A stretch of 64,000 bases of DNA from an uncultured Candidatus Melainabacteria bacterium (GTDB taxonomy: Bacteria > Cyanobacteriota > Vampirovibrionia > Gastranaerophilales > Gastranaerophilaceae), in the NCBI GenBank assembly GCA_947361615.1, contig CANAJP010000001.1, positions 1 to 64,000 on the forward strand. The letters run 5' to 3'. Positions 22,183 to 23,221 of this stretch are shown here, in pieces (the stretch's first letter is position 1; each line of letters opens with the position of its first letter). Position numbers and translations under genes: made by a program. The notes beneath the pieces are model-generated. The model saw only the letters and a list, made by a program, of their open reading frames with translations. It did no database searches and was not told the origin of the DNA.

Positions 22183-23221
22183 ATGAAAATACTAAGCTTC
22201 AAAAGCCTTGATTTATGGCCTTTTCCACTGAGGGGGGGGGGGCAAGACTGCGTTTACGATGGCAGAGATTTTACTTTCCCTCACCATCATAGGCGTCGTT
22301 GCAGCCATTACTTTACCATCTTTAACAGGTAACATTAACGAACGCACGTGGAATACTCAACGCAAAGCCTTATATTCTAGAATGTCACAGGCAATCGCAC
22401 TTATGCCGGCATTGAATGGTTACGGAACATATACTCTAGCAACATCTTCTGCTTCAGCTGTAGATACCGCAACAGAAACTTTTATAACTGCAGGTTTAGC
22501 AAAAGTTCTCAAAATTAACAATATTTGTGATAACGAACACATACGGGATTGCGGAATAGTAGAAAAGTTCAACACTATAGCTGGCGGAACATTTTCTACT
22601 CCAAAAGACCTTAATGAGTTAAATAGTATGTTTACCAACAGATATGGTGGCGTATTTCAAAATCCTCAGAAAGATATTGTAACCAAAGCTGCTGCGTTTG
22701 AAACTGCTAACGGTGAAAGCGTTCTGGCTTTTTATAATCCGTATTGCGTAGAATTTAACGCTTCTATAATTAATAACGCGACAATAAATTATTCCGATAA
22801 TATCGAACGTCATTATGTCCAACCGAATATGTGCGCAAATTTCATTTATGACCTGAATGGTAGTAAAGGTCCCAATACTGTAGGAAAAGATATTGGCTGG
22901 ATTAGTGTTTTATACCCTTCTGATTCCATGGTTGTCATGCCTGTAATGTTAGGGGCAAATACCTTAACACAACAATATAATCATTCGCAAGCAGTTTCAG
23001 AGTGTAAAAACTTTAACGCTGAAACTCGTTTACCTAACAAAGAGGAACTAATGTCAATTTTTTATAATAAAGAACTCATTGGCAACCAGGAATTATCTAC
23101 CAGACATATTTGGTCAAGCAGTACAGCAAAAAAATCATACTACTGGGCATTAAATTTTTCATCTTCGGACTTGTATTTAGTTCCTGATAATCAAAAATAT
23201 ATCTACTGCGTTAAAAGATGA
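22183..23221 (+). CDS. pilin-like/DUF1566-like surface protein 1, out of frame at a G11 tract (in frame from ATG 22183 with G10 or G13)
   Basis: RBS AAAGGATG and ATG 22183; leader MKILSFKSLDLWPFPLRGGG, then +1 relative to KTAFTMAEILLSLTIIGVVAAITLPS; the supplied ORF starts at 22259, inside the prepilin motif. Confidence 0.75.
22232..22242 (+). repeat. poly-G tract (G11) in the leader of pilin-like gene 1
   Basis: Direct reading: ctga-GGGGGGGGGGG-caagact. Confidence 0.97.

What the first reader, a model, noticed from the sequence alone, without database searches (positions are those of the whole stretch)
22183..22300. G11 tract puts pilin-like gene 1 out of frame: candidate slipped-strand phase variation
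Promoter (TTGACA-17-TAAAAT), RBS and ATG 22183 lie upstream of an 11-G tract (22232-22242). From ATG 22183 the frame is +1 relative to KTAFTMAEILLSLTIIGVVAAITLPS. G10 (or G13) gives MKILSFKSLDLWPFPLRGGGKTAFTMAE..., with no stop. The ORF-caller start (22259) is the Met inside FTMAE and would remove the prepilin cleavage site. Homopolymer G tracts in surface-protein leaders are a classic contingency-locus signature.
Basis: partly seen in the sequence, partly recalled or inferred. Interest (0 to 1): 0.82.

Follow-up and report, generated by a model that had tools for sequence, protein, structure and literature searches.

The report
Hundred-copy poly-G-switched pilus adhesin family
A gut bacterium related to cyanobacteria carries about a hundred versions of one pilus-like adhesin gene, nearly all preceded by a run of about 12 G's whose length puts the gene in or out of frame, so the cell can probably shuffle which surface proteins it shows.

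Summary
In detail: ATG 22183, a 49-nt leader, G11 (22232-22242) and a pilin frame one base off. It is not an isolated oddity. The genome (1.83 Mb MAG, genus of Candidatus Gastranaerophilus) holds over 90 copies of this gene, and five of six congeners hold 93-123. Of 160 copies with enough upstream sequence in five genomes, 144 have a G tract. Leaders are open in the start-codon frame. Spacers after the tract are open only in the pilin frame, so the tract is where the frame is decided. In G000, 44 of 53 copies are one G too long (OFF), 6 ON, 3 otherwise OFF. The bias follows frame, not G count. Another species shows all three frames. In public protein sets the same gene (95-100% identical body, same spacer) occurs in ON and +1 states. 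Mature proteins have an invariant 42-residue N-terminus, a pilin helix and a variable C-type-lectin-like Lcl_C domain. Leader-tract-spacer modules also reassort against bodies. Best explanation: slipped-strand phase variation of a giant pilus-adhesin repertoire, mostly OFF and one G from ON. The mechanism is known (Neisseria pilC, opa); scale, lineage and module shuffling look new. Switching itself is inferred; no reads were available.

The parts
22121..22149 (+). sigma-70-like promoter, TTGACA-17-TAAAAT
   Evidence: similar TTGAC...TA...T boxes lie upstream of many other copies (by eye; a loose regular expression found one in 87 of 144)
22175..22178 (+). AGGA of ribosome-binding site
   Evidence: read directly; AAAGGA-like site recurs before copies
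22183..22231 (+). leader coding segment of gene 1, type A (49 nt), frame 0
22232..22242 (+). G11 tract; frame switch, OFF in this assembly (one base too many)
22243..22252 (+). spacer (KTA) between tract and pilin motif, open in pilin frame
22253..23221 (+). mature pilin-like body: invariant 42-residue N-terminal segment, pilin helix, variable middle, C-terminal Lcl_C/C-type-lectin-like domain
30065..30113 (+). leader of second window copy, type A (49 nt)
30114..30125 (+). G12 tract of second window copy, OFF (one base too many)
30126..30335 (+). long spacer with CHAELVSAS-type palindromic repeat, open in pilin frame
30336..31292 (+). pilin-like body of second copy
38327..39220 (-). third window copy, no G tract, short in-frame leader MKKAFTMAEIL (predicted constitutive)

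Best explanation
Gene 1 is one member of a roughly 100-copy family of type-IV-pilin-like proteins with C-terminal C-type-lectin-like (Lcl_C) heads. Shown: each tract-bearing copy has an RBS, a short leader typically starting MK(N/K/R), a G8-G15 tract, a spacer of variable length, and FTMAEILLSL... with the spacer open almost only in the pilin frame. Inferred: replication slippage in the G tract changes its length by one. Where the summed length is a multiple of 3, the ribosome runs from the leader into the spacer and pilin and a prepilin with a normal class III signal is made (ON). Otherwise it stops early (OFF). Most loci in this genome sit at ON+1 (G13 for 30-nt leaders, G11 for gene 1), so one contraction switches them on. 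Different cells would therefore display different small sets of pilus adhesins. A second layer, also inferred from sequence, is recombination that exchanges leader-tract-spacer modules between bodies, including between tract-bearing and tract-less leaders.
For: Copy number: 115 matches in G000; 93-123 in five congeners, 6 in a sixth, 0 at E<=1e-20 in six genomes of other genera. Tract present in 144 of 160 copies with >=450 nt upstream held. Leaders: 0 of 146 open in +1, while frame 0 is the open frame used to call them; 87 of 93 spacers >=60 nt are open in the pilin frame against 0 and 4 in the other frames. Frame states ON/+1/other: G000 6/44/3; four genomes pooled 19/89/10 (p=2e-21 against equal thirds); G003 12/5/11, compatible with equal thirds. 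Modal tract shifts with frame class: G13 when ON=12, G12 when ON=11, G11 or G14 when ON=10 or 13 (p=3e-17). Same gene in two states in public data: P0173/P0178/P0180/P0181 (MKNRRVSINA-GGGG) against P0172/P0177/P0179/P0182 (MQ-GGGG, i.e. one G more), spacer identical and body 95-100% identical; also P0155/P0160/P0170 against P0152-P0154. Orthologs G000 C12 (G13) and G003 L281 (G12) have the same leader and spacer lengths and 85% protein identity. PilB/PilT-type ATPases are present and a prepilin peptidase in the congeners. Structure model pLDDT 85: 48-residue helix plus C-terminal domain whose best PDB match is the Legionella Lcl C-terminal domain, E=4e-3.
Against: No reads, isolates or expression data; all lengths are assembly consensus values, and G-run calls can be off by one. 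The +1 excess in four genomes is not what free, unselected slippage would give. Near-identical module pairs mostly share the same tract length (8 of 9). The prepilin peptidase family was not found in this 95.6% complete genome. MutS is present, so elevated slippage from mismatch-repair loss is not indicated by this test.
Confidence: 0.82

Rival explanations
1. Programmed slippage: the tract is genetically stable and the ON+1 state is the working state. RNA polymerase or the ribosome slips on the G run and a fixed fraction of product is in frame.
For: ON+1 is strongly conserved in four species with tract length compensating leader and spacer length. Near-identical pairs mostly share tract length.
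Against: G003 has no +1 preference (12/5/11). A different genus (G028) sits mainly at ON-1. Many genes in public data are directly in frame, and the same gene occurs in both states. The enrichment does not depend on the alternative ATG/GTG start before the tract.
Confidence: 0.1
2. Tract-bearing copies are a silent archive. Poly-G keeps them off and bodies are expressed only after recombination into tract-less leaders such as the copy at 38327.
For: Most copies are OFF in four genomes. Bodies and leader modules reassort; a body is found behind both a tract-less and tract leaders (P0026 with P0029/P0030).
Against: Copies keep RBS, open leader and open spacer, which an archive would not need. 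A sizeable minority is in frame (19 of 118, and 12 of 28 in G003).
Confidence: 0.08
3. The off-frame lengths are a sequencing or assembly artefact of G runs.
For: Long poly-C/poly-G runs at contig ends of this MAG look like two-colour sequencer artefacts; G005 has NN inside tracts.
Against: An error process cannot know the frame, yet the modal length shifts with frame class (p=3e-17). The pattern recurs in separately assembled species. G003 shows no excess of broken ORFs.
Confidence: 0.05

Closest known systems
Neisseria pilC and other poly-G/poly-C contingency loci (phasome)
   Same: Homopolymer G tract in the 5' coding region; +/-1 slippage switches translation of a surface or pilus-associated protein (own knowledge; phasome papers PMC5084427 and PMC5953494 were seen here only as search results).
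   Different: Different protein family and phylum; here one gene family has roughly 100 copies per 1.8 Mb genome, and the tract sits between a short leader and a spacer of very variable length.
Neisseria opa family (multi-copy, independently phase-variable adhesins)
   Same: Multiple loci with variable bodies, each with its own in-leader repeat switch, giving combinatorial surface display (own knowledge).
   Different: opa has about a dozen copies with CTCTT repeats and encodes outer-membrane barrels; here about 100 pilin-like copies with poly-G.
Neisseria pilE/pilS antigenic variation
   Same: Pilin with invariant N-terminus and variable C-terminus; bodies recombine (own knowledge for Neisseria).
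   Different: pilS copies are 5'-truncated and promoterless; here copies are complete genes with their own RBS and switch.
Legionella Lcl C-terminal domain / Lcl_C (PF07603)
   Same: C-terminal domain matches by sequence profile and structure search.
   Different: In Lcl the domain follows collagen-like repeats (own knowledge); here it is fused to a type IV pilin N-terminus. Pfam score is below the curated cut-off for single sequences of the window.

Membership tests
Slipped-strand phase-variable (contingency) locus | Homopolymer of >=8 nt within or just upstream of the coding region | tested here: met
   G11 and G12 in window; G8-G15 at 146 leader-bearing loci
Slipped-strand phase-variable (contingency) locus | Tract length decides whether the ORF is in frame | tested here: met
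   Leader open in frame 0, spacer open almost only in pilin frame; translation
Slipped-strand phase-variable (contingency) locus | Length polymorphism at the same locus between strains | tested here: met
   Same gene, 95-100% identical body and same spacer, in ON and +1 frames; inferred from protein N-termini of assemblies, and shown for relatives, not for the window's own locus
Slipped-strand phase-variable (contingency) locus | Reversible switching measured in a clone | not testable with these tools
   No isolates, reads or reporters
Type IV pilin / prepilin | Charged short leader, G/A at -1, hydrophobic F at +1, E at +5, long N-terminal helix | tested here: met
   ON leader MK...(G/A)|FTMAEILLSLTIIGVVAAITLPS; residue invariance in 89 copies; helix 6-53; TIGR02532 16.5 against cut-off 16.3, PF07963 below cut-off
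Type IV pilin / prepilin | Processing by prepilin peptidase and assembly by PilB/PilC machinery | tested here: inconclusive
   PilB/PilT ATPases present; A24 peptidase N-domain in six congeners but not found in G000; processing not testable
Lcl_C / C-type-lectin-like domain | Sequence above Pfam cut-off or matching fold | tested here: inconclusive
   29.4 and 31.4 bits against cut-off 34.9; profile hits 8q4e E=1.2e-5; Foldseek best hit 8q4e E=4e-3
pilE/pilS system | One expressed locus and 5'-truncated silent donors | tested here: not met
   Copies have their own RBS, leader and full body

The most novel reading that the evidence does not exclude
A two-layer surface-diversity engine: about 100 pilus-adhesin genes per genome, each with an independent poly-G switch held by selection one G above ON (poised OFF), plus recombination that mixes leader-tract-spacer modules with lectin-headed bodies and moves bodies between switchable and constitutive leaders.
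Probability: 0.4. Interest if true: 0.9.

Novelty: new variant of a known kind. Interest (0 to 1): 0.8.

Why it matters
If true, gut Gastranaerophilus, a non-photosynthetic relative of cyanobacteria known mainly from MAGs, carries one of the largest single-family phase-variable repertoires I know of (own knowledge; not surveyed), an estimated 7% of the genome (about 100 copies of 1.3 kb in 1.8 Mb). It would explain why these MAGs break at these genes and why annotators call truncated pilins starting inside FTMAE. The frame bias to ON+1 gives a direct, countable test of selection on contingency loci in natural populations, and ON/OFF frequencies could be read from existing metagenomes.

Tried and rejected
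Literature searches for Gastranaerophilales/Melainabacteria/Vampirovibrionia with phase variation, pilin or homopolymer found no description; this library lacks most subscription journals. Viral contigs: five pattern matches, none encodes the FTMAE family. Rfam on the window: nothing. Suspected that G003's mixed frames come from error-prone reads: its ORF density and A/T runs match G001, so rejected. Suspected that +1 is favoured because of an ATG/GTG start just before the tract: +1 is as frequent without that start. Tested near-identical module pairs for slippage: only nine pairs, eight with equal length, uninformative given the common mode. G005 tracts with NN were not used for lengths.

Full report
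What is there. In the pilin frame a TGA precedes the tract directly, so the only in-frame start in this assembly is the ATG inside FTMAE (22259), which would remove the prepilin cleavage site. The window holds a second such gene (leader 30065-30113, G12 30114-30125, body to 31292), also one base too long, and a third copy without a tract on the minus strand (38327-39220, MKKAFTMAEIL).

A gene family of about 100. Searching the window's own genome with the protein gave 115 matches in 1.83 Mb, about 95 of them near full length, mostly 51-66% identical. Congeners have 123, 93, 115, 95, 110 and 6 copies; six genomes from other genera have none at E<=1e-20. Named records matched through contig coordinates or lengths put the genus at Candidatus Gastranaerophilus: G005 is Ca. 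G. phascolarctosicola Zag_221, G001 is a Melainabacteria MAG, and G003 is a record apparently mislabelled Fusobacterium. The window's genome itself is unnamed.

Anatomy. I read 206 copies in five genomes. Of the 160 with at least 450 nt upstream held, 144 have a G tract. The order is: RBS, leader (mostly 27-33 nt, type B, such as ATGAAAAACAAAATTGTAAACATTTGCGCA; or 46-52 nt, type A, as in gene 1), G8-G15, spacer of 4 to several hundred nt, then FTMAEILLSLTIIGVVAAITLPSLTGNINERTW. Leaders are never open in +1 (0 of 146). Spacers of >=60 nt are open in the pilin frame in 87 of 93 cases and in the other two frames in 0 and 4. So translation passes from leader into spacer and pilin, and the tract is where the frame is decided. 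Tracts of G>=8 are otherwise rare: 93 of 107 in 1.15 Mb lie upstream of this family.

The protein. The first 42 residues of the mature protein are essentially invariant over 88 copies (mean modal frequency 1.00). The last 90 residues are the most variable part (about 0.4). The model has a 48-residue N-terminal helix and a C-terminal domain whose best solved match is the Legionella Lcl C-terminal domain, followed by C-type-lectin-like proteins (sequence profile match to 8q4e, E=1.2e-5). Single-sequence Pfam scores are below cut-off. PilB/PilT-type ATPases are present. The prepilin peptidase domain was found in all six congeners searched but not in G000, which may be a gap in a 95.6% complete assembly.

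Frame states. In G000, 6 copies are ON, 44 are one base too long, 3 otherwise OFF. G001, G002 and G004 show the same bias; pooled 19/89/10. G003 has 12/5/11. The bias follows frame, not G count: when the ON length is 12 the mode is G13 (61 of 81); when it is 11 the mode is G12 (12 of 18); when it is 10 or 13 the modes are G11 and G14 (14 of 19). A sequencing error process cannot know the frame. My reading, which is inference, is that ON is usually disfavoured and contraction-biased slippage piles lengths against the ON barrier, giving a poised OFF state. Part of the compensation could also be shared descent, since an A-to-G substitution next to the tract lengthens it without changing the frame. 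A fixed programmed frameshift is less likely because G003 lacks the bias and because the same genes are found directly in frame elsewhere.

Polymorphism. Of 2351 related public proteins (E<=1e-20), I read the best 120: 30 begin with a leader running through GGG or GGGG into the pilin, 13 begin at the tract (nearly all MQGGGG, possible only in the +1 frame after a leader ending ATGCA), and 26 begin inside FTMAE. Further searches found the same gene in both states: P0173, P0178, P0180, P0181 (MKNRRVSINA-GGGG-PLLTG...) against P0172, P0177, P0179, P0182 (MQ-GGGG-PLLTG...), with identical spacers and bodies 95-100% identical; likewise P0155/P0160/P0170 against P0152-P0154, and P0124 against P0127. 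These are assembly-level calls inferred from predicted N-termini; a one-base homopolymer miscall cannot be excluded for any single one. The direct ortholog of gene 1 (83% identical, G005) has the same leader length and G11.

Module shuffling. Bodies 98-100% identical over about 313 residues occur behind quite different leaders and spacers (P0026/P0029/P0030; P0078/P0088/P0091/P0094/P0098), and near-identical leader-spacer modules occur in front of bodies only 53-66% identical. Between the closely related G002 and G004, syntenic loci keep the body but differ in the leader-tract-spacer block. One body (P0026) sits behind a short tract-less leader while near-identical bodies sit behind tracts. 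Recombination between leader modules and bodies is therefore likely; its mechanism was not studied.

Beyond the genus. Poly-G tracts are abundant in several other genera of the family. In G028, a different prepilin family (FTLAEVLITLGIIGVVAALTLPNL) carries 27-nt leaders followed by G10 in most copies (one short of in-frame) and G11 in a few (in frame). So poly-G-switched prepilins may be a family-wide habit with independent pilin families.

Limits. No reads, isolates or expression were available. Copy numbers are probably undercounts because many contigs end in these genes. Long C runs at contig ends are probably sequencing artefacts and were not used. The novelty claim rests on a search of open-licence papers only.

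Noticed in passing
30126-30335 and spacers of many other copies: Spacers carry CHAELVSAS...FGMT / VQHD-type palindromic repeats inserted in frame; 37 of 146 spacers have the core, giving leaders of up to over 100 residues.
   Followed up: partly
G000 contig ends, e.g. C48:12770-12822, C45:14090-14144, C1:96932-96986, C15 and C38 starts: Runs of 20-50 C or G at contig ends, often on the wrong strand for the tract; probably two-colour sequencer artefacts, and a reason assemblies break there.
   Followed up: partly
L338-L343 (G028, another genus of the family): A different prepilin family (FTLAEVLITLGIIG) with 27-nt leader and mostly G10, some G11: a second poly-G-switched pilin family.
   Followed up: partly
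L211 and L251 near FTLAEVLIALAIIGVVAAMTIPTF: A distinct prepilin in the same genus also has G12/G13 in its leader region.
   Followed up: no
L347:5911 minus strand (G017): G10 near the start of a 551-codon open frame that does not look like a pilin, with the leader out of frame; another candidate switched gene.
   Followed up: no
L344-L346, L348 (G020, G030): G10-G14 tracts in or near non-pilin sequence, several with similar residues (QCE/KCE/VEP) after the tract; unexplained repeat.
   Followed up: no
51035-51889: PilT-type ATPase gene inside the window.
   Followed up: no
G000 whole genome: No prepilin peptidase N-domain (PF06750) found although six congeners have one; likely assembly gap.
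   Followed up: partly
JAMPIJ01 records (L172, L174 and others): Public MAG labelled Fusobacterium sp. NALB_7963_5 is a Gastranaerophilus relative by its genes.
   Followed up: partly
G005 tracts, e.g. L181, L195, L228: NN inside poly-G tracts of the Ca. G. phascolarctosicola assembly; scaffolding joins at the tracts.
   Followed up: no
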